This document shows, in pieces, positions 1,448 through 25,266 of a DNA stretch of 27,018 bases (position 1 is the stretch's first letter; the number at the start of each line of letters is the position of its first letter). The position numbers were made by a program, and so were the translations under genes. This stretch comes from a virus. Location of the stretch: IMG/VR virus record IMGVR_UViG_3300007541_000163, positions 1 to 27,018 of that record. The stretch is one strand, 5' to 3'. The notes under the pieces are model-generated. The model was not told the DNA's origin and searched no databases. It saw only the letters and a program-made list of their open reading frames with translations.

Positions 1448-1522
1448 GGGACTGTCGCCTATTGGTTAAGGCCCACTGCTTATAACGGTGTGAACTGAGT
1501 TCAATTCTCAGCAGTCCTACCA
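1448..1522 (+). tRNA. tRNA-Ile (anticodon UAU), CCA encoded
   Basis: Acceptor GGGACTG pairs with CAGTCCT (one G-U at the end), D arm GCCT/AGGC, anticodon arm CACTG-CTTATAA-CGGTG, and T arm CTGAG-TTCAATT-CTCAG. The loop puts TAT at the anticodon, reading AUA. The discriminator A is followed by an encoded CCA (1520-1522), unlike the two tRNA-Leu genes downstream. UAU is an uncommon bacterial isoleucine anticodon, since AUA is usually read by a lysidine-modified CAU tRNA. Phage genes here are AT-rich and use ATA often, which could explain carrying it. Confidence 0.85.
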
Positions 1523-1528
1523 AAAAAT

Positions 1529-1611
1529 GGGACGGTGGTGGAATCGGTAGACACACCAGACTTAAAATCTGTCGGGCATTGCCTGTGGGGGTTCAAGTCC
1601 CCCTCGTCCTA
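1529..1611 (+). tRNA. tRNA-Leu (anticodon UAA), copy 1
   Basis: Class II tRNA with a long variable arm. Acceptor GGGACGG pairs with TCGTCCT (G-U at both ends), anticodon loop CTTAAAA, T arm GGGGG-TTCAAGT-CCCCC, discriminator A 1611, no encoded CCA. Bases 1536-1572 (D arm through anticodon arm) are identical to 1640-1676 in the next tRNA. No group I intron interrupts the anticodon, unlike many cyanobacterial tRNA-Leu(UAA) genes. A 15-base palindrome centred at 1620 separates it from copy 2. Confidence 0.9.
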
Positions 1612-1632
1612 CTGGGCATTATGCCCAACTAA

Positions 1633-1716
1633 GCGAGTATGGTGGAATCGGTAGACACACCAGACTTAAAATCTGTTGGGAGTAATCCCGTGGGAGTTCA
1701 AGTCTCCCTACTCGCA
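1633..1716 (+). tRNA. tRNA-Leu (anticodon UAA), copy 2
   Basis: Acceptor GCGAGTA pairs perfectly with TACTCGC, the anticodon loop is CTTAAAA, the variable arm is long, the T arm is GGGAG-TTCAAGT-CTCCC and the discriminator is A; no CCA is encoded. It shares a 37-base identical core with copy 1 but has a different acceptor stem, variable arm and T stem. This looks like duplication or recombination between two tRNA-Leu lineages rather than a simple tandem copy. Confidence 0.9.
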
Positions 1717-3251: not shown

Positions 3252-6200
3252 ATGGGTCTTAGTCGCTTAGATAATTTTCTAAAGAATAGTAGAGGGGATA
3301 TTCTTTATGTAGATCCCTCAAGTATTGATTCAACAGATAGTATTGAAAATCAAGGTAACTCTTTGGTTAGACCTTTTAAAACAATTCAAAGAGCATTAAT
3401 TGAAGCTGCCAGATTTTCGTATCAAGTTGGACTGGATAATGATAGGTTTAGTAGAACCACTGTTATTGTTTATCCAGGTGAGCACTTAATTGATAACAGA
3501 CCTGGATGGATACCCATTCATGATAATCCTGTTAGTGGAAATAATTGGTTAACTAGAGGAGGTGCTTATTCAAATGCACTTGAGGGATTTAATCTAGATA
3601 CTAATTTTGATGTAAATAGTGAGAATAATTCATTATATAAAATGAATTCTGTGTATGGTGGAGTAATTATTCCTCGTGGTACATCTATTGTTGGATTAGA
3701 TCTTCGTAAAACAAAAATCAGACCCAAATTTGTTCCTAACCCTCAAGACGATACGGTCGATTCAACTTGTTTGTTTAGGGTGACAGGAACTTGTTATTTC
3801 AATCAATTTACATTCTTTGATGCTGATCCAAATAGTTTAGTATATAAAGATTATGGACTAAACTTATCAGTACCAAATTATTCTCACCACAAACTAACTT
3901 GTTTTGAATATGCTGATGGTGTTAATCCTGTAGCATTTGATAATGATGATTTAAATTATAATACAACAAAAACTGATCTTGATTTATATTATGAAAAAAT
4001 TGCATTAGTTTATGGTCCTTCCAGCGGGAGAGAAATTTCACCAGTATTTCCAAGTGTTGATGTTGATATTCAATCAAAAATTGATGAATATAGAATTGTT
4101 GGATCAATAGGTCAAAATATAGGGATAACCAGTATTAGATCTGGCGATGGTATTAATTCATCAAATATAATTACTGTAGATATTTTAGAACCAATTAATG
4201 GTCTTGATGTTGATACTCCTATTAGAATCGAAGGAATTCCAGCATCTGGATACAATGGATCTTTTGTTATTAGGAGTGTTGAAGATCCAACTACAATTAC
4301 ATATACAGTATCAAGTCCACCAGTAGATCCTTTACCAACAATTATTGCTGGATCTCCAACATTGAATATTAGTGTAGATACTGTAACTTCTGCTTCTCCA
4401 TATATCTTTAACTGTTCATTGAGATCAGTTTATGGTATGAATGGTCTACATGCAGATGGATCTAAATCTGATGGATTTAGATCTATGGTTATCGCACAAT
4501 TTACTGCGATCGGACTTCAAAAAGATGATAATGCTTTTGTAAAGTATAATCCTATTTCTGGTGCATATGAAGATTCTGTTAGTGTACCAAATTTACATAC
4601 AAATTCTTTATCAGTATATAAACCGTCTTATGATACTTTTCATATTAAAGCATCAAATAATGCTTTCTTGCAATTAGTATCTGTCTTTTCAATTGGTTTT
4701 GGTAATCATTATATTTCCGAGAGTGGTGGTGATTTATCAATCACAAACTCAAATTCAAACTTTGGTGCAAAAGCTTTAGTATGTAAAGGATTTAGAAAAG
4801 ATGCATTTCCTAGAGATGATGCTGGATATATCACACATATCTTACCACCACAGGCAATAAATTCCCAAGAAATTACGGTTGAATATGGTGCTATCGATGT
4901 TGAGACTACTATAGCACAACTTAATAATACTAGATTGTATCTTTATAATGAATTAAATCGAGACATACCTCCAAAATCTGTTATTGAGGGATATCGAATA
5001 GGTTCTAAATTTGATGATAGACTAAAAGTTGTAATTAATAATCAAGAAAAATCTGCATCTATTATAATGCCAGACACACAGGGTTCTGGTATATATGAGT
5101 GTTCTTCTTTTAAAATAGCAACTGTTGGAAGAACTAATATTGGTATTAATAGCATAAGTTCAAATATTCTTACTTTAACAGAACCACATTTATTTGAATC
5201 TGGTGAAACCATTCGTATTTTTAGTGATGATGGTGAACTTCCAGACGGAATTTCAAATAATAATGTATATTATGCTATCACTTCTGGTATCAATAATGAT
5301 CAAATTAAATTGGCAAGAACACTTGACGATAGTGTTAGTGAAAGTGCAGTAACTGTCAATAATAAAGGTGGAATTTTAACAATAGAATCTAGAGTTTCTG
5401 ATAAAAAGTCTGGAGATATTGGACATCCAGTTCAATATGATGAGTCTGTAGGTCAATGGTATATTACAGTAAGTTCTGTAAATAATGATATCTATAGTAC
5501 AATTACCAGTTTAGGTTTTCCTTCTTTAGGAAAGGCAACATCAAAAACTTATATATCTAGAACACCAGATAATAGATCTCTAGATAGTAAAATTTATAAA
5601 GTTAGATATGTAATACCAAAAGATAGTACTGTTATTTCTAGACCTCCAGAAGATTCATTTGTATTGCAAGAATCCAATACAACTAGTGGATTTAGTGACT
5701 CTGAAGTTGCAAAATTCATGAATATTAGTGCTGTAACGTTATCTAATACTTCTGAACTTAGAAATCCAAGATTCATTAGTAATGCAATTCATAATCCTGC
5801 CGTTGGAATTGCGACAATATTTACTGATACTGCTCACCAGTTGTCAATTGGATCAAAAGTAGAAATTAAAAATGTTATTTCATCAAATAATATAACTGGA
5901 ATTGCCAATACTGGATATAATGGCATTTATGATGTTTTAGATACACCAACAAGAAAATCTTTTAGTATTGGAATAACGACTAGTACTGGAATTTTTAGGT
6001 CAAATATCAATATAAGAAATCTTGATTTGCCTATTTTTAAGAGAAAAGAATTAGATAAAACTTTTTGGATTTATAAAACTGAAGAAATTCAAGATTATAT
6101 TCCAAATTCTAGGGACGGTGTATATCATTTAACTATAATTGATTCATCAAGTTCTCCTACAGTAAATCCATTTACAGATCTAAAGTTTTCTCAGCCATTA

Positions 6201-9068
6201 AAGAATTTATATCCACAACTTGATAGAGATAATCCAGAAAATAATCCAAATAAAACTAGAACTTTTGCTTTACCTACTCCAATTGGACTAACTGAAATTG
6301 ATAATCCTCAGAACAGTTTAACTAGAGAAGTTATTGAAAACACTATTAGTAGTTTTAATTATAATATTGGTATTCTTGATATACATTCACAAACTGGAAG
6401 TTCTCATACTATTACAACAAAACCAGATCATGGTTTGAATCGTGTTACTAAAGTATCTATTATCAATCCTGGAATTAACTATGGTGATGGGTCTGGAGGA
6501 GTTCAGGTATTATATAATGCTTCCTTAATTGGAGCTGCTGGATCTGTCGTTGGTAAACATGCAACAGCAAATGTTGAGGTAGATGTAAATGGAAGCATTA
6601 CTAATGTCAAAATAGTTGACGGTGGATCTGCATATGGGATTGGTAATACCCTTACAGTAGTTGGTGTTGGAACTACGACTGGTTGGGTTGCTGGATATGT
6701 CGTAGTTGATCAAATATACGATAATACTGGAGATGTGCTTAAATTATCGGGATTAAGAGATTCTAGGTTCGGTGAATATAATAATCTTTATAGAATTACT
6801 AATATAAATGTTGGTGATGATCATAATATAACAGTCTCTTCTGCATCTACGATTTACTCACACCCAGCATATGGTCAAAGGGAAGTTATAAGTGGAGTTA
6901 ATACTGATGGATTGATTAATATTAATACTTCAATCCTTTCTGATGTTACTTTATATTTAACTGGACAATCTATTGGAATTAATTCTACTTTTTATAATAA
7001 TATAACTGGAATTACTACGATAACAACAAATAATTCTCATGGATTATTGGTTGGTAATAAAATCGTTGTAAGTGATGTACCAGGTATAGACCAGTATAAT
7101 AAAACATATTATGTTAGGAATGTAATTAATAACAATACTATCGATGTTTTTTCTGGAGCAGGAGTTACTTCACTATTACCAGCTTCTGGTGGATACATTT
7201 ATCCTGTAGGATTTGATGATCAACAAGACATTATTGATATTGATAAAGAATATGATTCGTCTAGACTTGTTGCCAGATATGCTGGTATAACTACTACTTC
7301 AACTACTTTATTGGGTGACCCTGCAATTAACACTATTGCGGTTACTAACGCAACTCATAGAGGTTGGGAAGTTGGTGACTATATCATTGTTAATAAAGAG
7401 ATAATGCGTATTAATCAAAGTGTCATAAATGACACTTCTTTGAGCGTATTCCGTGGACTTTTTGGAACAAGAAAAGACATTCATCCAGCTGGATCTGTAA
7501 TAAGAAGGGTTAAATTTATACCAACTGAACTTAGAAGAAATTCTATTATTCGTGCATCTGGACATACATTTGAATATCTTGGATATGGTCCTGGTAACTA
7601 CTCTACCGCATTACCTTCAAGACAAGACAGGCAGTTTAAAAATATTGAAAGAATTTTATCACAATCTTCTGCAATTAATGGTGGTACTCCATTCTATAAT
7701 GGATTGGATGATAAAGGAAATGCATACACTGTAAATAAATTTACCAGTGGTTCTACTGGTACAGATTTGCTCACTAATGCTCCAATACCTACTGTTAGGG
7801 GAGAAGATATAACGAGTGATAATTCATCTGTTGGGTATGATATTTTATCTACAGAGCAATTAACTGTTAATAGAGGTATAAAAGTTGATGGTGGTAAAGA
7901 TAACAATATTATCTCAGAATTTAATGGTCCAACAATCTTTAACGAAAAAGTAACCGTTAAAGATTCTATTGAGGGAAATAGTATTCTTATTCAAGGTGAT
8001 CAAACAATTTCTAGAGAAATAAGTATAGGAATTGGCACACCAGAAATTGCTGGAAATATTGGTGATTCTAAAATAAATGCAGAACCAAAAGATGGTGGAA
8101 CATTTGGTTGGGTATACACTGATAATAATACTTGGAATGAGTTTGGACCAATAAAAACGACTGCAGATAATTATTATGTTGGTTTATGGAGTGGAACCTT
8201 TAGAGGTGATGGATCAGGATTAGCAAATGTCTCTGATGTATGGGTTTTTGATGGTGTTGGAATCTCTACTACCACAAATGTTGGTATTGAAACGACATCT
8301 GCAAAACCTGGATACTCTCTTTATGCTGCTGGTCCTGTATTATTTGAGAATAATGTTGAATTTAGATCAGAAGCTTTAGTTTGGAATATTGAGAAAGGAT
8401 GGATAGTTGAGACTGGTATCAGTACATTTAATCAGCAGGTCAATTTTAATACCTCAAATCATACAGGTGTCTCAACATTTATAAATCAAGTTATTATAAG
8501 CACTAATCCACAAATAACTGGAGGTGCTAATGAACTTGGTCAATATGTAACTTTTAGACAAACTGATCAAGCGTTAACAAATGCTTATTTGTATGGTGGA
8601 ATTAACTTTGAGGGTAATGATGTTGGTAATAGTGGTGTAAGGGGTTACATTAGAGGTGCTTCTGAAGGTGCTGCTGGTCAATTTGCATTGGTCTTTGGAA
8701 CTCAAGAATCTGGGGCATCTAATCCTCAAGAGAGACTTAGAATCAGTGGTGCGGGTAATGCTACCTTCTCTGGTACTGTTACTGCAAACTCTGATGAGAG
8801 ACTTAAGGAGAATGTCGTTGGAATTGGTAATGCTCTAAGTAAAGTTCTTGACCTCAGAGGTGTATACTTCAACCGTGTTGGTCAACCAGAACGTGAGATT
8901 GGTCTTATTGCACAAGAGGTTGAAAATGTTCTTCCTGAACTTGTATTTGAATCTCCAGATGGAGTTAAGTCTGTTGCATATCAAAACATGGTTGCTGTTC
9001 TAATTGAGGCAATCAAAGAGCAGCAAGAGCAGATTAACGAACTCAAGGCGCGATTGGACAGTCTTTGA
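3252..9068 (+). CDS. Giant virion structural / tail-fibre protein with S74 chaperone tail, 1938 aa
   Basis: The N-terminus MGLSRLDNFLKNSRGDILYV, then RPFKTIQRALIEAARFS and TVIVYPGEH, is the pattern of large cyanomyovirus structural proteins and suggests a beta-helix/pectate-lyase-like head. The body is Ser/Thr/Asn/Ile/Gly-rich with repeated domains: each has a Thr-rich strand, 'H-x-L...G', a beta strand, then 'YN-x-x-Y-x-V', near residues 290, 635, 850 and 1250. A different module near 1355 reads GDYIIVNKEIMRI...VFRGLFGT. The C-terminus from N1846-S1847-D1848 is an S74 domain (ERLKEN, IGLIAQEVENVLPEL, then a coiled coil), predicted to release about 92 residues by self-cleavage before S1847. 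The start is ATG 3252 downstream of a late promoter; no strong Shine-Dalgarno is seen. Its likely job is host recognition at the tail. Whether it is a long or short fibre or a baseplate spike is undecided. Confidence 0.85.
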   Translation: MGLSRLDNFLKNSRGDILYVDPSSIDSTDSIENQGNSLVRPFKTIQRALIEAARFSYQVGLDNDRFSRTTVIVYPGEHLIDNRPGWIPIHDNPVSGNNWLTRGGAYSNALEGFNLDTNFDVNSENNSLYKMNSVYGGVIIPRGTSIVGLDLRKTKIRPKFVPNPQDDTVDSTCLFRVTGTCYFNQFTFFDADPNSLVYKDYGLNLSVPNYSHHKLTCFEYADGVNPVAFDNDDLNYNTTKTDLDLYYEKIALVYGPSSGREISPVFPSVDVDIQSKIDEYRIVGSIGQNIGITSIRSGDGINSSNIITVDILEPINGLDVDTPIRIEGIPASGYNGSFVIRSVEDPTTITYTVSSPPVDPLPTIIAGSPTLNISVDTVTSASPYIFNCSLRSVYGMNGLHADGSKSDGFRSMVIAQFTAIGLQKDDNAFVKYNPISGAYEDSVSVPNLHTNSLSVYKPSYDTFHIKASNNAFLQLVSVFSIGFGNHYISESGGDLSITNSNSNFGAKALVCKGFRKDAFPRDDAGYITHILPPQAINSQEITVEYGAIDVETTIAQLNNTRLYLYNELNRDIPPKSVIEGYRIGSKFDDRLKVVINNQEKSASIIMPDTQGSGIYECSSFKIATVGRTNIGINSISSNILTLTEPHLFESGETIRIFSDDGELPDGISNNNVYYAITSGINNDQIKLARTLDDSVSESAVTVNNKGGILTIESRVSDKKSGDIGHPVQYDESVGQWYITVSSVNNDIYSTITSLGFPSLGKATSKTYISRTPDNRSLDSKIYKVRYVIPKDSTVISRPPEDSFVLQESNTTSGFSDSEVAKFMNISAVTLSNTSELRNPRFISNAIHNPAVGIATIFTDTAHQLSIGSKVEIKNVISSNNITGIANTGYNGIYDVLDTPTRKSFSIGITTSTGIFRSNINIRNLDLPIFKRKELDKTFWIYKTEEIQDYIPNSRDGVYHLTIIDSSSSPTVNPFTDLKFSQPLKNLYPQLDRDNPENNPNKTRTFALPTPIGLTEIDNPQNSLTREVIENTISSFNYNIGILDIHSQTGSSHTITTKPDHGLNRVTKVSIINPGINYGDGSGGVQVLYNASLIGAAGSVVGKHATANVEVDVNGSITNVKIVDGGSAYGIGNTLTVVGVGTTTGWVAGYVVVDQIYDNTGDVLKLSGLRDSRFGEYNNLYRITNINVGDDHNITVSSASTIYSHPAYGQREVISGVNTDGLININTSILSDVTLYLTGQSIGINSTFYNNITGITTITTNNSHGLLVGNKIVVSDVPGIDQYNKTYYVRNVINNNTIDVFSGAGVTSLLPASGGYIYPVGFDDQQDIIDIDKEYDSSRLVARYAGITTTSTTLLGDPAINTIAVTNATHRGWEVGDYIIVNKEIMRINQSVINDTSLSVFRGLFGTRKDIHPAGSVIRRVKFIPTELRRNSIIRASGHTFEYLGYGPGNYSTALPSRQDRQFKNIERILSQSSAINGGTPFYNGLDDKGNAYTVNKFTSGSTGTDLLTNAPIPTVRGEDITSDNSSVGYDILSTEQLTVNRGIKVDGGKDNNIISEFNGPTIFNEKVTVKDSIEGNSILIQGDQTISREISIGIGTPEIAGNIGDSKINAEPKDGGTFGWVYTDNNTWNEFGPIKTTADNYYVGLWSGTFRGDGSGLANVSDVWVFDGVGISTTTNVGIETTSAKPGYSLYAAGPVLFENNVEFRSEALVWNIEKGWIVETGISTFNQQVNFNTSNHTGVSTFINQVIISTNPQITGGANELGQYVTFRQTDQALTNAYLYGGINFEGNDVGNSGVRGYIRGASEGAAGQFALVFGTQESGASNPQERLRISGAGNATFSGTVTANSDERLKENVVGIGNALSKVLDLRGVYFNRVGQPEREIGLIAQEVENVLPELVFESPDGVKSVAYQNMVAVLIEAIKEQQEQINELKARLDSL
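8771..8796 (+). repeat. 26-nt direct repeat at S74 junction, copy 2
   Basis: Identical to 623-648; it encodes GTVTANSD at residues ~1841-1848 of the giant fibre protein, immediately at the predicted self-cleavage point. Confidence 0.75.
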
Positions 9069-9075
9069 ACTGGTC

Positions 9076-9099
9076 GGGGGGTTGACACCCCCCTTTTTT
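9076..9099 (+). terminator. Rho-independent terminator with a -35 box as its loop
   Basis: GGGGGG (9076-9081), loop TTGACA, CCCCCC (9088-9093) and TTTTTT (9094-9099). The stem is six G-C pairs directly followed by six T residues, eight bases after the fibre stop codon. The six-base loop is a consensus -35 hexamer. Confidence 0.9.
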
Positions 9100-9111
9100 G
9101 TGCTGTATAGT
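9082..9111 (+). promoter_or_regulatory. Sigma70-like promoter nested in the terminator
   Basis: TTGACA 9082-9087 and TATAGT 9106-9111, spacer 18. Predicted start near 9118, giving a short leader before GTG 9137. It would separate the early-type helicase/methyltransferase transcript from late fibre transcription in almost no space. Confidence 0.8.
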
Positions 9112-9136: not shown

Positions 9137-12100
9137 GTGAGCACTTCTCTTCTTACCAAGCAAACCGAATTCACTTCTAATAATATTAGTGAAAGTGAAA
9201 TCAATACTTGGTTTTACATTTTGTATAATCATAATCTTCATTTGTTCTTTTTTGGTCAAGCAAAAGACTCTAGGAAGAATAAACGGCATAATGATACTGA
9301 TTATACAAAACTTATTGGAAGTTGGAATCTTCTAGGTCATAAACATACTACTTATTGGATTGGCATTAAACAGGTAGGACATCACCTTGATAAAAAGGTT
9401 CATCCAGAAATTGAAGCATTTCCAAATTGTGAAAGTAATTCTGGATCTGGTTCTAATGAAGTTTTTATGTTGAAAGGATTTAGTTTAGAGCGTACATTGC
9501 AAGTATGCCTCAATATTGTAAACAAACTTTTTGGTGAAGCAACGTTTGAAGATGCAAAAAAACTTGTACTCAAACATTATCAAAAAGATTTTGGTATTAA
9601 AATTCGTTCTGCTTGGGAAAAACATAAACAATTTCTTCTGAATGCTAAATGTCGTTCTGGAAAGAATATTATGGTTCTCAGTCATATTGTGGATGAAAAC
9701 GATAAATTGTCTATTGCATGTTCTCGTTCTGGATCTCCAGGAAAAGGTTGGGAAAATGATAAAGAATATTTTCCATCGGTTAAATTTATTAATGTTAAAG
9801 ATAAGGGATGGGAACAAGAACTTGCTTATTGGATGCTTCAAGATGGTGTACAAATTGTTGTTTGGGGAACGGTTCAAAGTCTGACCAATCGTGCTGAAGA
9901 ACTTTGTAAATATCATATCGATTTTATTGCAATTGATGAGGCACATATTGGTAGTCAGGCACAACAATTTACAAGTCTTTATAATAAGTTTAATGAATCT
10001 CAAAATGAAGTAATTAAACTTATTTACATTACTGGAACTGCAGATAAATTGTTCCCTTCTTTTAATAAAGAAAATAGTTTTGTATATTCTTATTGGCAAG
10101 AACAACTAGATGTTCGTAAAGGATTATTTGGTGATGAATATCGTCCTAAAATGAGGGTTCATTTTGCAAAATATGAATGTGAGGAATATAAAAAGATTTT
10201 TGGTGATGATCCAGATGCTATGGGTAACATTTTTACACTGAAAGAAAAGAAGGGTAAGGATTCTGAGTTTCTTTATGATTCTCTTGCCCGTAGTTTTGCT
10301 ATGAAGTTTTACGGTCCAGAACAGTCTAAACTTCGTCTTCCTAATCGTTTGCTTCAAGGCAATTACCATATGATGTCAATGAAGGGAGTTGGTGAGTGTC
10401 ATGCATTTAAAAAAATTGTAGAATGTTATATTCCAACTCTTGTAGTTACTGGTGAAACGGATGAAGATCAAAAGACAATCAATAATTTTTGTCTTCGCAA
10501 TTCTAAAGCACTTATTATCACTTGTAGTGCCAATGTTCTTGGAATGACTTGTGAGTATATTGATACTGTTATCAATTGTCATGGTGGAGAGTCTAAAGAA
10601 TTTTGGCAACAGTTTTCATTTCGTGGTGGATCTGGAAATCATGATTGGGATGTAATTGATTTTGATGCAGAACGAGGACTTCGTGTAATATGTGAATCTT
10701 ATCAGAAAGCAACTGATACAGAACCAGAACTTTTAAACTATGATCAAAGCGATTTTATAGTTATTGATGAATGGTTGAATGGATTTAAACAACTAAATCA
10801 AGATAGGATTGAGCAAATTTTGCACAATAGTTTTGAATCTGTAAAACCCAGTTTTTCTAATATTGTAAAGGGACTTGATCTTGATGATATTGACTTTTTT
10901 GATTTTGAATTGGATTCAAATCTAACAGATATTATTTCTGAAGAAATTTTAAATGAAAATGGTGCAAATAATAAAAATTGTATTAAAAAACTGAATAACA
11001 AAAAAGAAAAATCCAATGATCCCGAAAGTCAAAAAGTAAAGACTGTTAAGGCACTTCTAGAGTCTATTCGTCTTGTTATGACTTATATTATTTCTGAAGA
11101 TATTAAGGTTTATACAATTAACTCTATTATTAAAACCGAAGTTTATAAAAATATTACTGGAGATCATAATAAAATTCTTGAAAAGGTTATTGATAAAAAT
11201 CCCAATAGTAAAAATGCTATTAATGAAAAAATTAGTGCATTTAGTTGCGTTATTAAAAAAAAGTTGAAGGAATCTAAGGCAAAAACCTTAGATGAGTACA
11301 GTGTATCCTTACAAACTCAAAAGAGTATTCCTATGGATCTTTTTGATTCTATGCTTGATAACTGCAATGATTTTTCTAAAGTCTATATGTTTGGTGATCC
11401 CAGCGGATCTCACACTGCCCGTCTTCTGGAGAGGAACATTAATCCAAACAATGTTACTGTGTGGGAGAGTTGCGATAGTCACCGTAATCGTGTAAAATAT
11501 GTAAATGAAGATGTAAATATTGTTGATTCTCATCCAAATATGAAGTTTACTGCTATTCTTGCCAATGCCCCATATAAAGATTCTACTAAGAAGGCAAAAA
11601 ATAATAAACTTTGGCCCCTTTTTGTTGAGCAACATCTTGATTTGATTGCTCCTGGTGGAGATCTGTGTGAAGTTACTCCCACGTCTGTTTTGGGTATTAC
11701 AGGTAAAGGTAAGAAGTTTATGAAGTTGTTCTCTACAAAGTATAATCTAAAAATGATTGATTATACTGCAGATGATTACTTTACAGAAAGTGTTGCTATT
11801 TGTCGTTGGCATCTTACAAACGAACCTTATCAGGGTAAAACGCTTGTTATTACTCACGATGAATCTTTTATTTGGGATTTGAGGAACGGTCTTCCTTTAA
11901 TTGGAGATGCTGCAATTAAGCAGAGCATTCTTAATAAAATTGCTAACTCCAGTCATCCTCGTATTCCTTTGAAAATGGGTCAAGATATTGCTAAAGAAGA
12001 TCATGTACCTGATGGTAAGTATGAAATCTACCACTCATCCAAAAAAATTAAACGTACTAACATTGTTCCTACAACTGGGGATGTACTAAAGTTTGTTGCA

Positions 12101-12391
12101 CCATTCTCTTCCACTTATAAAAAAGGAGGTGTTTTTATTACCAATGGATATGTGGGTATGCTTAATTGTTGGTGTCCTATTGCTTCGGAAGAAGAGGGGA
12201 ATCGCCTCCTCAAAATTTTTGATAAAAAGATCATTCAGTTTTTTATTGATTCTTATAAAAGGAATAGTGGATTTACTGCTGCTATTAAAAATGGTGAAGT
12301 ACCTGACATCACGGACTATGATAATTTGCCTGATCAATTTGGTTTTACCGAAGAAGAAGTTGAGTATTTAAAGAAGAATAATGTCATCTAA
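9137..12391 (+). CDS. SF2 helicase-adenine methyltransferase fusion, R-M-like, 1084 aa
   Basis: Begins at GTG 9137, the first in-frame start after the promoter. Residues ~25-55 (FYILYNHNLHLFFFGQAKD, then Arg and His) weakly resemble a GIY-YIG nuclease. Residues ~170-600 are a superfamily 2 helicase: CRSGKN (K176, with Asn where Ser/Thr normally follows), DEAH at 267-270, a TGTA motif III and WQQFSFRGG as a degenerate motif VI. A charged linker follows. Residues ~735-900 are an N6-adenine methyltransferase-like domain: FGDPSGSHT (D754) as a variant motif I, VTVWES as motif II, and NAPY at 810-813 in place of NPPY, followed by WPLFVEQHLDLIAPGG and a P-S/T-x-L loop. The order recalls single-chain type ISP or type III restriction enzymes. 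Possible roles are restriction of competing phage, self-modification or counter-defence. Helicase and methyltransferase folds are fairly sure; a nuclease is not. The end overlaps the next gene by 11 bases. Confidence 0.75.
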   Translation: MSTSLLTKQTEFTSNNISESEINTWFYILYNHNLHLFFFGQAKDSRKNKRHNDTDYTKLIGSWNLLGHKHTTYWIGIKQVGHHLDKKVHPEIEAFPNCESNSGSGSNEVFMLKGFSLERTLQVCLNIVNKLFGEATFEDAKKLVLKHYQKDFGIKIRSAWEKHKQFLLNAKCRSGKNIMVLSHIVDENDKLSIACSRSGSPGKGWENDKEYFPSVKFINVKDKGWEQELAYWMLQDGVQIVVWGTVQSLTNRAEELCKYHIDFIAIDEAHIGSQAQQFTSLYNKFNESQNEVIKLIYITGTADKLFPSFNKENSFVYSYWQEQLDVRKGLFGDEYRPKMRVHFAKYECEEYKKIFGDDPDAMGNIFTLKEKKGKDSEFLYDSLARSFAMKFYGPEQSKLRLPNRLLQGNYHMMSMKGVGECHAFKKIVECYIPTLVVTGETDEDQKTINNFCLRNSKALIITCSANVLGMTCEYIDTVINCHGGESKEFWQQFSFRGGSGNHDWDVIDFDAERGLRVICESYQKATDTEPELLNYDQSDFIVIDEWLNGFKQLNQDRIEQILHNSFESVKPSFSNIVKGLDLDDIDFFDFELDSNLTDIISEEILNENGANNKNCIKKLNNKKEKSNDPESQKVKTVKALLESIRLVMTYIISEDIKVYTINSIIKTEVYKNITGDHNKILEKVIDKNPNSKNAINEKISAFSCVIKKKLKESKAKTLDEYSVSLQTQKSIPMDLFDSMLDNCNDFSKVYMFGDPSGSHTARLLERNINPNNVTVWESCDSHRNRVKYVNEDVNIVDSHPNMKFTAILANAPYKDSTKKAKNNKLWPLFVEQHLDLIAPGGDLCEVTPTSVLGITGKGKKFMKLFSTKYNLKMIDYTADDYFTESVAICRWHLTNEPYQGKTLVITHDESFIWDLRNGLPLIGDAAIKQSILNKIANSSHPRIPLKMGQDIAKEDHVPDGKYEIYHSSKKIKRTNIVPTTGDVLKFVAPFSSTYKKGGVFITNGYVGMLNCWCPIASEEEGNRLLKIFDKKIIQFFIDSYKRNSGFTAAIKNGEVPDITDYDNLPDQFGFTEEEVEYLKKNNVI

Positions 12392-12788
12392 AAACAAGCA
12401 TAATAAAAAACATGGATCTATATTAGATAGATCTGATGAACGCATTAAACAAACGCAGGAGGTATTTACTCCTCCTGCATTAATTGATAAGATGATTGGT
12501 GATCTTCCAGAAGAAGTTCTTAAAGATCCAAACTCAAAATTTATTGATAACTGTGCTGGTGATGGTAACTTTTTGGTGCAATTATTTAAAACACTTAAAC
12601 AGTATCATACCGAACAACATATTCTCAACAATATGTTGTATGCTGTAGAATTAATGGAAGATAATCATGAAGAATTATGTAAGAGATTGGGTGTTCCAAT
12701 AGATCATCCCCACTATGTCTGTACTAATGCCCTAACTTATGATTATATATTCATGAAGAAAATCACATTAGATCAATTTATGGATTGA
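12381..12788 (+). CDS. N-terminal half of an N6-adenine DNA methyltransferase, 135 aa
   Basis: TQEVFTPPALIDKMIGDLP (residues ~25-43) matches the usual entry to Eco57I/HsdM-like methyltransferases. FIDNCAGDGNFL (54-65) is a clear SAM-binding motif I and YAVELMEDN an acidic motif II. The protein then stops at residue 135, just where NPPY (motif IV) would be expected, so no catalytic motif is present. The upstream fused protein has NAPY but a poor motif I, and the genes overlap by 11 bases. A split or heterodimeric enzyme, a regulatory subunit, or a remnant of a longer gene are all possible. No frameshift continuation with NPPY is visible in the 57 bases before the next gene. Confidence 0.7.
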   Translation: MSSKNKHNKKHGSILDRSDERIKQTQEVFTPPALIDKMIGDLPEEVLKDPNSKFIDNCAGDGNFLVQLFKTLKQYHTEQHILNNMLYAVELMEDNHEELCKRLGVPIDHPHYVCTNALTYDYIFMKKITLDQFMD

Positions 12789-12845: not shown

Positions 12846-14093
12846 ATGACCCTGAACCTTCGACCCACACAAGAAGAAGCAAGGTCCATTATGGACCGAG
12901 TTCGTAAAGGAATCATTGTCATGCCCACTGGTGCAGGCAAATCCTTCACGATGGTTGCGGACGCACTTGAGCAACTTAAGTCTGGTCCAAAAACCATTCT
13001 TGTTGTTGCTCCCCGCATTCTTCTAGCACAACAATTGAGGGAGGACTTTATGAAGTTTCTTCCGTCTAATTGTGTACATATCTGTCACGTTCATACTGGA
13101 GAGTCTGTTTACTTCAGTACAACATCACCTAAAAAGATTGCACTTTTTAATGATGTTGCTCGTGGAGTATCTGAGTCTTGTGTAATTTTTACTACCTACA
13201 ACTCTTTGAATAAAGTTGTAGATTCCAATATTCATATTGATACTGTTTATTTTGATGAATCGCACAACTCAGTCAAGAAGAACTTTTTTGATTCTACCAG
13301 GCATCTCTCTGCTAATGCTAACCGCTGCTATTTCTTCACTGCTACTCCTAAGTATTCTCACACTGTATCCAAACCTGGGATGAACAATCCCGAAGTTTAC
13401 AATCAGATCATTTACAACGTCCCTGCTCCACGCCTCATTAACGACGGTTCTATCCTTCCTCCTAAGATCAATGCCATTCGTATCCCCTCTGACCGTCTGA
13501 AGGGCGAGGAGGCGGCAGAGAGGGACTGTATGACACTCCTTGATACCATCTGCAATGAGGATCATATGGAGAAGGTTCTGATTGCAGCACCAAATACAAA
13601 AGTCATGATGCGTATGCTTGCTGAGACCGACTTTATGTCAGAAGTTCAGTCTATGGGATATGACCTTCTTTGGATCACTAGCAAGCATGGTGCCTTCTTG
13701 AATGAGAACAAGATTACTCGTGAGGAGTTCTTCTCTCTAATTCAAGAATTTGGTGCAGATCCAGACAAAAAGTTTGTAGTTCTGCATTACTCTATTCTTA
13801 GTGAAGGTATCTCTGTTCCTGGTCTGACTTCTCTAATTCTTATGCGTCAGATGAATGTTATTGAAATGTGTCAGTCTGTTGGTAGGGTTATTCGCCTTCA
13901 TCTTGACGATATTAAAAGGATTCAGAAAGGAACTCTTGTTCCTGGTAAACTTCAAGACTATAAAAAATCATTTGGTCTTGTTCATGTTCCTGTATATGAT
14001 AATGTAGGAATCTCCACTGTTAATCGTCTTCAGGATGTTGTAGATACTGTATTTGTTGAAGGTAAACCTGCGATTAGTGTGATTAAAAAATGA
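12846..14093 (+). CDS. SF2 DEAD/DEAH-type helicase, Res-like, 415 aa
   Basis: Complete superfamily 2 motor: MPTGAGKS Walker A at 26-33 (K32), VVAPRILLAQQL as motif Ia, YFDESH at 135-140 as motif II, FFTATP as motif III, HYSILSEGISVPGL as motif V and CQSVGRVIR as motif VI. It is compact, with no extra nuclease or methyltransferase domain. An ATP-dependent DNA or RNA translocase role is expected, perhaps in recombination/replication (a UvsW-like job) or with the preceding modification genes. Phage T4 UvsW is longer (about 500 aa), so equivalence is not claimed. It has its own terminator and probable promoter upstream, is visibly richer in G+C than its neighbours, and its stop overlaps the next ATG (ATGA). 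Confidence 0.9.
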   Translation: MTLNLRPTQEEARSIMDRVRKGIIVMPTGAGKSFTMVADALEQLKSGPKTILVVAPRILLAQQLREDFMKFLPSNCVHICHVHTGESVYFSTTSPKKIALFNDVARGVSESCVIFTTYNSLNKVVDSNIHIDTVYFDESHNSVKKNFFDSTRHLSANANRCYFFTATPKYSHTVSKPGMNNPEVYNQIIYNVPAPRLINDGSILPPKINAIRIPSDRLKGEEAAERDCMTLLDTICNEDHMEKVLIAAPNTKVMMRMLAETDFMSEVQSMGYDLLWITSKHGAFLNENKITREEFFSLIQEFGADPDKKFVVLHYSILSEGISVPGLTSLILMRQMNVIEMCQSVGRVIRLHLDDIKRIQKGTLVPGKLQDYKKSFGLVHVPVYDNVGISTVNRLQDVVDTVFVEGKPAISVIKK

Positions 14094-17543: not shown

Positions 17544-17732
17544 ATGAGCGACTCTAAGTTTCCTTATAATTCTATGCCAGTTAGACTGGATATAAAATCT
17601 AAAAAGATAACTACAGAGATTTGTTTTTTTGCTGATATATCTCATGCTGAGAAGTACATTGCAAGGTATGGACTAACAAAAAGAGAATATAAATTATCTA
17701 AACCAAGAAAAAAGAAGAATGAATCAGTTTAA
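17544..17732 (+). CDS. Small basic hypothetical protein, 62 aa
   Basis: Start ATG 17544 has GAGG eight bases upstream, better than the TTG at 17508 inside the HNH gene. The product has a beta-rich centre (VRLDIKSKKITTEICFFADI), a helix (SHAEKYIARYGLTKREYKL) and a strongly basic tail (KPRKKKNESV). It overlaps the radical SAM gene by 14 bases, so the two are probably co-translated. It could be a partner or leader peptide for the radical SAM enzyme, but nothing in the sequence proves this. Confidence 0.65.
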   Translation: MSDSKFPYNSMPVRLDIKSKKITTEICFFADISHAEKYIARYGLTKREYKLSKPRKKKNESV

Positions 17733-18552
17733 TACTCCACAAATAGAATTGCATGTTACTCATGCATGTAATTTTACTTGTGAAGGTTGCTCTCATTATT
17801 CCAACCATGGACATTCTGGAAATCTAAGTTTATCAGATGCTGAAGATTGGTTGTTAAACTGGAGTCAAAGAATAAAACCAAAGTCTTTTGTAATTCTTGG
17901 AGGTGAACCAACACTTAATAAGGATTTGTGTGATATTTTATATCTTGTTCGAATGGCGTTTCCAGATCCTTATACTAAAATAGATTTAGTTTCTAATGCA
18001 AGTTTTTTACACAATCACCCAGGATTATCTGTTGCACTATTGGCAACACAAGCAAACTTAGCAATATCTATCCATAGTGTTAAGGATAAAAACTACGCTA
18101 AAAAATTTAAAAGGGGATATGAACTTGCTAAGTCATGGAGACATGATTTGGGAGTTCATGTAGAATTTTGGGATTTTACAAATAATCATTGGATACCACA
18201 ATATAAAGGATATGGTAATAACATGATGCCATATGAGGACAATAATCCAAGACTAAGTTGGGAGAAGTGCATATCAAAACATGCTATACAACTTCATGAG
18301 GGTAAGCTATGGAAGTGTCCATCTTTGGCATACTTGCCAATGCAAGCTGATAAATACAAATTGGACTCAAAGTGGAACAAATATTTAAAATATAAACCAC
18401 TTGATTATAATTGTACTGACGAAGAATTGCTTGAATTCTTATCAAAAGAAGATGAATCATTTTGCTCAATGTGTCCAGCAAATACTTTAGAACCATATAT
18501 TAAAAAAGATCCAACATTGCCTGTTAGTTATTGGGAGAAATTGAATGAGTGA
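17719..18552 (+). CDS. Radical SAM enzyme, 277 aa
   Basis: CNFTCEGC provides Cys17, Cys21 and Cys24 for the [4Fe-4S] cluster that splits S-adenosylmethionine. FVILGGEPTLNKDL contains the GGEP motif (61-64), and LVSNAS and LAISIHS are the next barrel strands. The C-terminal third has further cysteines (CISKHAI, KCPSLAY, CSMCPA) in an arrangement like a reduced SPASM/Twitch domain, which may hold an auxiliary cluster. Such enzymes modify peptides, nucleic acids, sugars or cofactors. The small basic gene overlapping its start could be a substrate or partner; the carbamoyltransferase and SGNH genes downstream favour a tailoring pathway. The product cannot be predicted. Confidence 0.85.
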   Translation: MNQFNTPQIELHVTHACNFTCEGCSHYSNHGHSGNLSLSDAEDWLLNWSQRIKPKSFVILGGEPTLNKDLCDILYLVRMAFPDPYTKIDLVSNASFLHNHPGLSVALLATQANLAISIHSVKDKNYAKKFKRGYELAKSWRHDLGVHVEFWDFTNNHWIPQYKGYGNNMMPYEDNNPRLSWEKCISKHAIQLHEGKLWKCPSLAYLPMQADKYKLDSKWNKYLKYKPLDYNCTDEELLEFLSKEDESFCSMCPANTLEPYIKKDPTLPVSYWEKLNE

Positions 18553-18796
18553 AGAGATTAAAAAAGAGCATCCAGAAATTGCTGAAGTTGAATGGATTGA
18601 CGACGCATTTTATGTTGTGGAATCAAGATTTATGTGGAAAAGTGTTCGTAAAGACACGGGTAGGGATTTTATATTTGGATTAACCAAAGAGTCTGTAACT
18701 AAAGCAACAAGATGGTACTTAAAGTGTGAGCAAGATGGAACTTTAAATGAAATTAGTAAAGTAGTTGGTGATGGTATAGTAGGTGGTAAATTGTAA
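18545..18796 (+). CDS. Small hypothetical protein, 83 aa
   Basis: Not recognised. Overlaps the radical SAM stop by 8 bases and ends 13 bases before the carbamoyltransferase, whose strong ribosome-binding site lies in that gap. The protein is acidic at the N-terminus (MSEEIKKEHPEIAEVEWIDD), then FYVVESRFMWKSVRK and a helix ending ATRWYLKCEQDGTL. No membrane or signal sequence. Position between two enzymes suggests an accessory or carrier role, but no carrier motif is seen. Confidence 0.65.
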   Translation: MSEEIKKEHPEIAEVEWIDDAFYVVESRFMWKSVRKDTGRDFIFGLTKESVTKATRWYLKCEQDGTLNEISKVVGDGIVGGKL

Positions 18797-18809
18797 AGGG
18801 AGGTAGTTT

Positions 18810-20234
18810 ATGATTACTTGGGGAATATCTGCAAATAGTCATAATGCAGCATTATCTATTTTTTTTAATGATAGATTAGTTTTTGCTAGTGAGAGTGAAA
18901 GATTTAGTAAAATAAAGAATGACCCCGATATACCAGAGTCATTAATAAATCATGCTCTTGTTTATGGAAAACCAGATTTAGTTTGTTGGTATGAAAATCC
19001 ATTCAAGAAAAAGATTAGGCAAGTAATTGCAGGACAAGGATTTGGAGTCGATAATTTTAAAAAGTATTTTGATTGTAAACATAAATTCATAGATCATCAC
19101 TACAGTCATGCTTGCGCTGGTCATTTTACCAGTAAATTTAATCACTCTGCTGTTGTTGTGATTGATGCTATTGGAGAATTTACTACATTAAGTATTTGGG
19201 AAGCATATAAAAAAGAGTTGCATTTAAAATATAAACTTAGATATCCAAATAGTATAGGACTTTGGTATTCTGCAATGACTCAACGTTGCGGATTTAAACC
19301 AAATGAGGAAGAATATATTTTAATGGCAATGTCTGCATTAGGCGACAAAACAAAATTGAAAGATAAGATTATTGATGAACTAATAGATTTGAATTTTAAT
19401 TGCAAAAGAAATTTTCATAGAGGTTGTTTAGATTGGAGACCAGAAGAATCGATTGAAGATATTGCTGCAGCAACTCAAGAAGTTTATGAATTGCTTTTTA
19501 AACAGGTATTGACAAAGGCAAAAAAACTTGTACGTTCTGATAATCTTACTTTAGTTGGTGGTTGTGCTTTAAATTGCGTAGCAAATATTAATGCATATGA
19601 TTTTTATAAAAATGTTTGGATTATTCCTGCACCAGGAGATGCTGGATCTGCGATAGGAGCAGTTCTTGCACATAAAAAGATTAAAATTGATTTTACTCCA
19701 TATCTTGGATATAAGATATTACATAAAGATAATAATCAGGATATTGTTAATTACTTAATTAAACATAGAGTTTGTGGTCTTGCTAGAGGAAGAGCAGAGT
19801 TTGGACCTAGGGCTTTAGGTGCTAGAAGTTTACTTGGTGATCCTACTTTTAAAAATATAAAAAATGTTGTGAATGGGATAAAGAAAAGAGAATCATTTAG
19901 ACCATTCTCACCAGTAGTACCAATTGAATATGCATCTAAGTATTTTGATATGCATAGTGATATGGTTGAAAGTCCTTATATGCAATACGCTGTAAAGTGC
20001 AAGATGCCAGAACTTTTGCCTGGAGTTATTCATGTTGATGGAACTAGTAGAGTTCAAACTGTGAGAAAGTCTGATGCTCCAAGGCTACATGAACTCCTTT
20101 TACGTTGGGGCAAGGCAACAGGACATCCAGTTCTTTTGAATACTAGTTTAAACATTAAGGGAGAACCAATATTAAATGATGAAGATGATTGTATAAGATG
20201 GTCAAAGCAAAATAAAGTAAAGATATTCTCATGA
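18810..20234 (+). CDS. NodU/CmcH-type O-carbamoyltransferase, 474 aa
   Basis: Transfers a carbamoyl group from carbamoyl phosphate, through carbamoyl-AMP, to a hydroxyl on a sugar or other acceptor. The N-terminal Kae1/YrdC-like part has WGISANSHNAALSIF, DHHYSHACAGHF (metal-binding His set) and VVIDAIGEF. The C-terminal part has VGGCALNCVANIN, APGDAGSAIGA, RGRAEFGPRALGARSLLGDP, FRPFSPVV and LLNTSLNIKGEPI. All diagnostic blocks are present, but 474 aa is shorter than many family members (about 550-600). GGGAGGT a few bases before ATG 18810 is a strong ribosome-binding site. It lies between the radical SAM and SGNH genes, so one pathway is likely. The acceptor is unknown. Confidence 0.92.
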   Translation: MITWGISANSHNAALSIFFNDRLVFASESERFSKIKNDPDIPESLINHALVYGKPDLVCWYENPFKKKIRQVIAGQGFGVDNFKKYFDCKHKFIDHHYSHACAGHFTSKFNHSAVVVIDAIGEFTTLSIWEAYKKELHLKYKLRYPNSIGLWYSAMTQRCGFKPNEEEYILMAMSALGDKTKLKDKIIDELIDLNFNCKRNFHRGCLDWRPEESIEDIAAATQEVYELLFKQVLTKAKKLVRSDNLTLVGGCALNCVANINAYDFYKNVWIIPAPGDAGSAIGAVLAHKKIKIDFTPYLGYKILHKDNNQDIVNYLIKHRVCGLARGRAEFGPRALGARSLLGDPTFKNIKNVVNGIKKRESFRPFSPVVPIEYASKYFDMHSDMVESPYMQYAVKCKMPELLPGVIHVDGTSRVQTVRKSDAPRLHELLLRWGKATGHPVLLNTSLNIKGEPILNDEDDCIRWSKQNKVKIFS

Positions 20235-24099: not shown

Positions 24100-25266
24100 A
24101 TGAACCAACAATTGATTGACAAAAACTACTTAGTTATTCCTAATTTTATATCATCAGAACGAGCAAAAGAATTAGCAAAAGAGTTTAAACACTATAGTGA
24201 TACTCATAATCTTGAGGATGATCCCCAAGTTCATGGTTGTGTATCAAAGTTTGATCATATACCATTTGTACAATTACTTGTAGAAAAGAATACTCAAGTT
24301 GGACAATTAGTGGGGGAGCAAGTTCTTCCTACATATTCCTATGCAAGGATATACCAAAATGGTAATGTGCTAGATGGTCATCTTGATAAGGGTGAGTGTG
24401 AAATATCTTTGACATTGAACCTTGATTGTGACAAACCTTGGGATATTTGGATTGAATCTCCAGATAATGCAAAAACATATGTTACCTTAAATCCTGGAGA
24501 TGCAATGGTTTATTTGGGAACTATTGCTAGACATGGTAGAGATCCTTTTGATGGTGAATATTGCACTCAACTATTCTTGCATTATGTTAATGTCAATGGA
24601 CCACATAAGTTAAAGTATTTTTGCAAACAAAACACATACGTTGAAGATGCAACTAAACCACCACAAAAAGAAGAACCACCAGAGAAAACAATAGTATTTA
24701 CAAGTACAAATCCACTTGCTGACTTTATTAGGGTGTATGATAACATTCTTACAAAAGAGGAATGTGATAATATTATCAAAGAGTACTGTAATAGTGAAGA
24801 GTGGACAACTGCACTAGTAGGAGCTGGTCAAGAATCTACTGCAGTAAGAAATTGTGATATTTTACATATATCACAACCAGATGTAATATCAAATAATCAA
24901 GAGATTAGAAAAAACATTGATGATTTGCTGTTTCGTAAATCATTTGTTGCAGCAAAAAAATATGTTGAAGAATTCTCAACTCTATCATTAGAATCTGATA
25001 GTGGATATGATTTATTGAGATATAATGTTGGTGGATTCTATCGTCAACATACTGATAGTTATAAAGCAAATCCAAGAACTCTGTCCATGTCAATCAATCT
25101 AAATGATGATTATATCGGTGGTGAGATGGCATTTTTTGATAGAGATATTCAAATTAGAACAGAGCCAGGATCTATAATAGTATTCCCCTCAAACTTCATG
25201 TATCCACACGAGATAATGAAGGTTATTGAAGGTGTTAGATACTCTATCGTTACTTGGTTTATTTAA
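24100..25266 (+). CDS. Double-domain 2OG-Fe(II) oxygenase (prolyl-4-hydroxylase-like), 388 aa
   Basis: Two oxygenase domains in one chain. Domain 1 (~1-175): GHLDKGECEIS gives H94-x-D96, NPGDAMVYLGTIARHGRDP gives H145, and FLHYV closes the fold; no Arg occurs at the usual 2-oxoglutarate position. Domain 2 (~205-388): FYRQHTDSY gives H317-x-D319, GGEMAFF, GSIIVFPSNFMYPHEI gives H370, and GVRYSIVTWF gives Arg380, a textbook prolyl-4-hydroxylase-like set. A Pro/Glu/Lys linker (~180-205) joins them. In the family the reaction is hydroxylation of a protein side chain. In a late operon, a virion or host protein target is possible. The start is ATG 24100 two bases after the previous stop. Confidence 0.9.
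   Translation: MNQQLIDKNYLVIPNFISSERAKELAKEFKHYSDTHNLEDDPQVHGCVSKFDHIPFVQLLVEKNTQVGQLVGEQVLPTYSYARIYQNGNVLDGHLDKGECEISLTLNLDCDKPWDIWIESPDNAKTYVTLNPGDAMVYLGTIARHGRDPFDGEYCTQLFLHYVNVNGPHKLKYFCKQNTYVEDATKPPQKEEPPEKTIVFTSTNPLADFIRVYDNILTKEECDNIIKEYCNSEEWTTALVGAGQESTAVRNCDILHISQPDVISNNQEIRKNIDDLLFRKSFVAAKKYVEEFSTLSLESDSGYDLLRYNVGGFYRQHTDSYKANPRTLSMSINLNDDYIGGEMAFFDRDIQIRTEPGSIIVFPSNFMYPHEIMKVIEGVRYSIVTWFI

What the first reader, a model, noticed from the sequence alone, without database searches (positions are those of the whole stretch)
9137..12391. Single-chain helicase-methyltransferase with an N-terminal GIY-YIG-like segment
The order (possible nuclease, SF2 helicase, adenine methyltransferase) recalls type ISP or type III restriction enzymes, but key motifs are altered: GKN in Walker A, NAPY for NPPY, and a poor motif I. 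It could be a phage-borne system against competitors, a DNA-modification enzyme, or a decoy/anti-restriction protein. A system like this in a cyanomyovirus would be worth characterising.
Basis: partly seen in the sequence, partly recalled or inferred. Interest (0 to 1): 0.75.

Follow-up and report, generated by a model that had tools for sequence, protein, structure and literature searches.

The report
Phage restriction-like enzyme, split methylase
A cyanobacterial-virus gene joins a DNA-cutting domain, a DNA motor and only half of a DNA-marking (methylating) enzyme in one protein, and the missing half, which binds the methyl donor, is made by the small gene right behind it, a two-piece design that recurs in many phages and in a few bacterial operons.

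Summary
The ORF is real: 9137-12391, 1084 aa. It holds a T5orf172-type GIY-YIG-like domain, an SF2 helicase whose best PDB match is the type ISP enzyme LlaBIII, a helical region, and an Eco57I-type adenine-methyltransferase end with motif IV (NAPY). The 'poor motif I' is explained by the next gene. ORF 12381-12788 (135 aa, overlapping by 11 nt) carries methyltransferase motifs X, I, II and III and stops before motif IV. The methyltransferase is therefore split: a constant SAM half ('alpha') and a variable NPPY/target half ('beta'). Support: about 73 of 76 alpha genes with a full upstream region in IMG/VR sit directly behind a beta. Aeromonas phages fuse beta and alpha naturally; that model matches class-beta methyltransferases across both parts. 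Alpha and beta match adjoining parts of CamA. Actinobacterial chromosomes carry the same modules as alpha / T5orf172-helicase / beta operons. Minimal beta+alpha pairs sit at the same tail-fibre/uvsW locus in P-SSM2. Most likely this is a phage-borne, type-ISP-like restriction-modification assembly with a two-gene methylase. Anatomy is strong; restriction activity is inferred. GKN and NAPY are rare substitutions in an otherwise conserved copy, so a decoy is unlikely but not excluded.

The parts
9137..12391 (+). large subunit ORF, 1084 aa, GTG start
   Evidence: PHROG 22930 + 3689; 44 relatives in IMG/VR
9194..9481 (+). N-terminal T5orf172-type GIY-YIG-like domain (residues ~20-115); conserved positions R50, D85, H89, E108
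   Evidence: conservation (R50 45/51, D85 51/51, H89 48/51, E108 45/46); T5orf172 Pfam hits in four relatives; hhalign
9554..10816 (+). SF2 helicase-like ATPase (residues ~140-560)
   Evidence: Foldseek/VIA: LlaBIII, RadD
9644..9667 (+). Walker A AKCRSGKN (residues 170-177); position 177 normally S/T
9935..9946 (+). Walker B DEAH (residues 267-270)
   Evidence: D 52/52, E 52/52
11021..11362 (+). all-helical region after the helicase (residues ~629-742), coupler-like in position
   Evidence: AlphaFold secondary structure; position as in type ISP enzymes (PMC4872093)
11378..11527 (+). pseudo N-half of the methyltransferase: beta-alpha-beta fold with DPSG in place of motif I (residues ~748-797)
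   Evidence: absent from minimal beta subunits
11534..12388 (+). beta half: motif IV onward plus putative target-recognition region (residues ~800-1084)
   Evidence: Pfam Eco57I; CamA/M.TaqI match of the beta profile; alignment
11564..11575 (+). motif IV NAPY (residues 810-813)
12381..12788 (+). alpha subunit ORF, 135 aa: motifs X (FTP), I (DNCAGDGNF), II (YAVELMEDN), III; ends before motif IV; overlaps the large ORF by 11 nt
   Evidence: Pfam N6_Mtase 20-89/311, phrog_4376, conservation, pairing
12546..12569 (+). motif I DNCAGDGN of alpha (residues 56-63)
   Evidence: D56, G60, G62, N63 invariant in 9 cyanophage alphas
9076..9093 (+). intrinsic terminator after the tail-fibre gene
   Evidence: also upstream of relatives L015, L017, L020, L021, L025, L026, L110
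9082..9111 (+). sigma-70-like promoter TTGACA-N18-TATAGT, its -35 inside the terminator loop
   Evidence: 11 of 12; TTGACA also in L015, L017, L020, L021; TATAAT-like -10 in most relatives

Best explanation
A phage-encoded, type-ISP-like restriction-modification assembly whose adenine methyltransferase is split over two overlapping genes. The large subunit (9137-12391) carries a T5orf172/GIY-YIG nuclease-like domain, an SF2 DNA motor, a helical region, a degenerate first methyltransferase half and the catalytic/target half (motif IV onward). The small subunit (12381-12788) supplies the SAM-binding half (motifs X, I, II, III). Together they would form one N6-adenine methyltransferase that recognises a sequence and marks phage DNA. 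At unmarked sites the motor would be activated and the nuclease would cut. Shown by sequence and comparison: modules, motif split, gene pairing, natural fusion, bacterial operon. Inferred: physical assembly in this phage, methylation, ATP-driven motion, cleavage, and the target (host DNA or competing phages).
For: Motif complement: alpha profile matches CamA 28-84, beta profile matches CamA 151-293 and M.TaqI 98-172. Pairing: of 82 distinct alphas, 6 have the upstream cut by the contig end; 68 of the other 76 have an upstream gene with the motif by a strict pattern, 67 of them overlapping, and 5 more by eye, against 43 of 1672 other ORFs. Minimal betas begin a few residues before NPPY and so lack any SAM half (P-SSM2, ACG-2014f gp191). 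Natural beta-alpha fusion in Aeromonas phages; its model (pTM 0.71, alpha part pLDDT 84-96) aligns over residues 1-374 with class-beta MTases (Z 10.6, rmsd 3.5, 160 residues), while alpha alone aligns to CamA 9-158 and beta to CamA 155-577. In the window model the part after ~800 is unfolded without alpha (pLDDT ~30). Restriction-like parts: LlaBIII best fold match; nuclease positions conserved; GIY-YIG of another kind (LEM-3-like) fused to beta in Klebsiella and Vibrio phages; actinobacterial operons alpha / T5orf172-helicase / beta. Purifying selection. T5orf172 is a GIY-YIG subfamily with a glutamate-dependent nuclease example, Odn (PMC10448857).
Against: The nuclease domain does not reach a Pfam cutoff in the window protein. 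This copy has GKN and NAPY, rare at positions that are otherwise conserved. The most common form fetched at this locus is alpha+beta without nuclease or motor, so methylation can stand alone. The bacterial relatives have no tested function known to me.
Confidence: 0.6

Rival explanations
1. Modification only: alpha+beta methylate phage DNA to escape host restriction, and the helicase/nuclease-like part only helps target search or DNA remodelling and does not cut.
For: Minimal alpha+beta pairs without helicase or nuclease are common at the same tail-fibre/uvsW locus (P-SSM2, L041-L094). Nuclease domain sequence is weakly matched.
Against: Putative nuclease positions stay conserved in the helicase form; two unrelated GIY-YIG types are joined to beta in different phages; the same T5orf172-helicase is kept in bacterial operons.
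Confidence: 0.25
2. Recombination or replication factor: a T5orf172-helicase acting with the adjacent UvsW-like helicase on branched DNA, with methylation as a strand mark.
For: T5orf172 was proposed as a Holliday-junction nuclease in phages (PMC7824862); a UvsW-like helicase gene follows at 12846-14093 and in most relatives; RadD is a strong fold match of the motor.
Against: uvsW also follows alpha+beta pairs that have no helicase and other loci have the system without uvsW nearby (L116, L082), so the neighbourhood is not specific; TRD regions are highly diverse as in specificity subunits.
Confidence: 0.1
3. Decoy or decaying copy: this particular protein is inactive (GKN, NAPY, degenerate motif I) and at most binds restriction enzymes or DNA.
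For: N177 and A811 are each found only here; dN/dS of the window pair is at the high end, 0.24-0.26.
Against: The window departs from highly conserved positions no more than other divergent members (4 of 91); DEAH, motif VI-like R, N810 and Y813 are kept, and N and Y of the motif contact the target adenine in LlaGI (PMC4872093); motif I is supplied by alpha.
Confidence: 0.12

Closest known systems
Type ISP restriction-modification enzymes (LlaGI, LlaBIII)
   Same: Order nuclease - SF2 motor - helical region - adenine MTase - target region; LlaBIII is the best PDB fold match.
   Different: T5orf172/GIY-YIG-like instead of Mrr nuclease; MTase motif I missing from the chain and supplied by a second gene; carried by a phage.
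Synechococcus phage proteins annotated 'type II restriction-modification system restriction subunit' (MA10, S-CAM7 gp055) and 'DNA methyltransferase' (S-CAM7 gp056)
   Same: Homologous over most of the length, 30-36% identity; alpha is nearby in each.
   Different: Alpha is annotated only as a hypothetical protein and the split was not noted; S-CAM7 and ACG-2014f keep helicase and beta as separate genes.
Actinobacterial operons alpha / T5orf172-helicase / beta (Rhodococcus, Cellulomonas, Frondihabitans)
   Same: Same three modules, beta starting MSKKFDVVIGNPPYQ, degenerate alpha-like C-terminus on the helicase.
   Different: Chromosomal, alpha first, beta a separate gene, alpha fused to the helicase in Frondihabitans.
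Aeromonas phage permuted MTase (phiAS5 ORF0215, phrog_11371)
   Same: Beta and alpha halves homologous to the window pair by motif and profile.
   Different: One chain, no helicase or nuclease.
CamA / M.TaqI / Eco57I gamma-class adenine MTases
   Same: Both halves align to them.
   Different: Unsplit, motifs in order X-I-IV.

Membership tests
Type ISP RM enzyme | N-terminal Mrr-family PD-(D/E)XK nuclease | tested here: not met
   N-terminus matches the T5orf172 group instead; feature list from PMC4872093
Type ISP RM enzyme | SF2 helicase-like ATPase | tested here: met
   conserved motifs
Type ISP RM enzyme | all-helical coupler between ATPase and MTase | tested here: inconclusive
   helical region 629-742 predicted; LlaBIII alignment spans 71-805 but residue-level match of the coupler not shown
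Type ISP RM enzyme | complete gamma-class MTase on the same chain | tested here: not met
   motif I degenerate on the chain, intact on the next ORF
Type ISP RM enzyme | target recognition domain and ATP-dependent cleavage | not testable with these tools
   C-terminal region of low model confidence; activity needs experiments
gamma-class N6-adenine MTase (Eco57I type) | motif X, motif I and NPPY together | tested here: met
   only jointly: motif IV (NAPY) on 9137-12391, motifs X/I/II on 12381-12788
T5orf172 / GIY-YIG superfamily | match above the family cutoff | tested here: inconclusive
   window below cutoff; relatives L091 and L134 above; profile alignment E=4.5e-6
Type III RM | separate Res subunit with C-terminal nuclease and Mod subunit with complete MTase | tested here: not met
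   helicase and catalytic MTase half are on one chain, no complete Mod
P1 DarB-like MTase-helicase | homology to DarB | not tested
   DarB itself was not compared; no DarB-named family came up in the PHROG scan of the window protein

The most novel reading that the evidence does not exclude
A general two-component adenine methyltransferase in which one small constant SAM-binding subunit serves several interchangeable catalytic/target subunits, so that phages change specificity, and add or drop a motor and nuclease, without replacing the SAM half; in the window form this gives a phage-borne restriction system that spares its own marked DNA and cuts host or competing DNA.
Probability: 0.35. Interest if true: 0.82.

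Novelty: new variant of a known kind. Interest (0 to 1): 0.64.

Why it matters
It would add a naturally split, permuted adenine methyltransferase to the restriction-modification field, with the SAM half reused beside many target halves. It would give a concrete candidate for how lytic cyanophages tell their own DNA from other DNA, in phages that already exist in culture (S-CAM7, MA10, P-SSM2), and it gives a likely function to the small hypothetical genes of phrog_4376.

Tried and rejected
Close-relative scan of IMG/VR with the single protein found nothing; the alignment found 44. Direct PDB sequence search with the window protein gave nothing. PADLOC gave no hit for the large protein. A scan of bacterial genomes with the helicase alignment gave nothing; the alpha alignment gave 9. 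The idea that NAPY/GKN mark a decaying gene was tested by counting departures from conserved positions and not supported. PD-(D/E)XK identity of Bellamy gp87 and the Lak ORF could not be confirmed by Pfam or PDB sequence search. Alphas that lack a beta by my pattern were checked by eye: L030, L035, L056, L086 and L089 do have NPPY; L032, L061 and L131 remain unexplained. Literature searches found no description of a split adenine methyltransferase of this kind, in an open-access library only.

Full report
What is there. The ORF at 9137-12391 (+) is a complete 1084-aa frame with a GTG start. It lies behind a long tail-fibre-like gene (3252-9068) and before a UvsW-like helicase (12846-14093; phrog_16). 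The record is a 27-kb virus fragment; its relatives are Synechococcus myophages, so 'cyanomyovirus' is likely, but no host was established. A terminator at 9076-9093 and a sigma-70-like promoter at 9082-9111 share the same bases, and this arrangement recurs in front of several relatives, so the two genes probably start their own transcription unit.

Domains. Residues ~20-115 form a T5orf172-like, GIY-YIG-superfamily domain. The window copy scores below the Pfam cutoff, but relatives score above it and the family profile aligns with that group with the same landmark residues. Position 85 is D in 51 of 51, position 108 is E in 45 of 46 and position 50 is R in 45 of 51 sequences. Residues ~140-560 are an SF2 motor with DEAH intact. 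Residues 629-742 are helical. The whole model's best PDB match is LlaBIII, a type ISP restriction enzyme. Residues 748-797 form a beta-alpha-beta unit with DPSG where motif I would be. From ~800 on come motif IV (NAPY) and a C-terminal region that is very diverse among relatives.

The missing half. ORF 12381-12788 overlaps the large gene by 11 nt. It matches the first part of N6-adenine methyltransferases only (N6_Mtase profile positions 20-89 of 311), has invariant motif X and motif I residues in nine cyanophage copies and ends before motif IV. Profiles of the two proteins fall on adjoining parts of the same known enzyme, CamA: alpha at 28-84, beta at 151-293.

How general the pairing is. An IMG/VR scan gave 359 alpha relatives, 80 of them fetched, and 44 loci of the helicase form. 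Of 82 distinct alphas, six have the upstream side cut by the contig end. Of the other 76, 68 have an upstream gene with the motif-IV pattern by a strict rule, 67 of them overlapping, and five more by eye. The background is 43 of 1672 ORFs. The partner may be a minimal 186-207-aa beta that starts a few residues before NPPY (as in P-SSM2), a ~330-aa beta with the pseudo first half, a helicase gene plus beta gene (S-CAM7, ACG-2014f), or the single large chain of the window. Two loci carry two different betas before one alpha (L067, L113). S-CAM7 0910CC49 has two beta-alpha pairs.

Fusion evidence. Aeromonas phages encode beta and alpha as one chain in the order IV-onward, then X-I-III (phiAS5 ORF0215). 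Its predicted model aligns across both parts with class-beta methyltransferases, which have that same permuted order (M.BceJIV, Z 10.6, rmsd 3.5, 160 residues). Taken separately, its alpha part aligns with CamA 9-158 and its beta part with CamA 155-577. Unsplit relatives in the ordinary order also exist (KIL1 gp76, phAPEC8 gp78). In contrast, in the window model without alpha, residues 801-1059 stay at pLDDT ~30; the alignment there is shallow, so this is only suggestive.

Relatives outside phages. Three actinobacterial chromosomes carry an operon of alpha, a ~1096-aa T5orf172-helicase with a degenerate alpha-like C-terminus, and a 351-aa beta that begins a few residues before motif IV; in Frondihabitans alpha is fused to the helicase. 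A gut phage (NatCom_35866) has an alpha-like gene, a full Eco57I-type methyltransferase and a T5orf172-helicase. Other nuclease types stand beside beta elsewhere: LEM-3-like GIY-YIG fused to beta in Klebsiella and Vibrio phages; in Bellamy and Lak phages a neighbour looks PD-(D/E)XK-like by eye only.

Most likely mechanism. Alpha and the C-terminal half of the large subunit assemble into one adenine methyltransferase that reads a target and marks phage DNA. At unmarked sites the motor and the N-terminal nuclease act, as in type ISP enzymes. Assembly and methylation are inferred with good support; movement, cleavage and the biological target are inferred from family knowledge. T5orf172 nuclease activity is known for Odn of phage ICP1 (PMC10448857).

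The odd residues. GKN and NAPY are each found only in this copy among 52 and 27 sequences. N810 and Y813, whose counterparts contact the target adenine in LlaGI (PMC4872093), are kept. The copy is no more divergent at conserved positions than other outlying members, and selection on the family is purifying. Reduced activity of this copy remains possible.

Novelty. The parts are known kinds. A naturally split adenine methyltransferase with a constant SAM half beside many target halves, in one branch joined to a type-ISP-like motor and a GIY-YIG-like nuclease, was not found in the literature searched (open-access library only). I therefore call it a new variant of a known kind.

Noticed in passing
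L067 4433-6399 and L113 8097-10234: Two different beta genes in a row before a single alpha, suggesting one SAM subunit serving two specificities.
   Followed up: partly
L005 5896-6459 (Bellamy gp87) and L139 309-1052 (Lak-B2): Genes between or beside beta and alpha with PD-(D/E)XK-like motifs by eye (GID..QFKFK; GVDAV..VIQVKF); not confirmed by Pfam or PDB sequence search.
   Followed up: partly
L167 2017-7002, L168 1398-6461, L169 3770-9209: Actinobacterial chromosomal operons with the same alpha / T5orf172-helicase / beta modules.
   Followed up: partly
L027, L029, L031, L034, L038, L104: Helicase and beta are two ORFs overlapping by ~55 nt where the window has one gene; a natural split or a frameshift site.
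   Followed up: no
L032, L061, L131: Alpha genes without a recognisable beta directly upstream.
   Followed up: no
L155 733-1146: Alpha at 63% identity in a 20-kb contig filed under a Rhodobacteraceae MAG; probably a phage contig binned with it.
   Followed up: no
window 24100-25266: 388-aa ORF: first half matches 'ferrochelatase' phage families, second half DNA endonuclease V; an unusual fusion or a misnamed family.
   Followed up: no
window 1448-1716: Three tRNA genes, Ile(TAT) and two Leu(TAA) side by side.
   Followed up: no
window 17719-20234: Radical-SAM domain protein followed by a Nol-like carbamoyltransferase.
   Followed up: no
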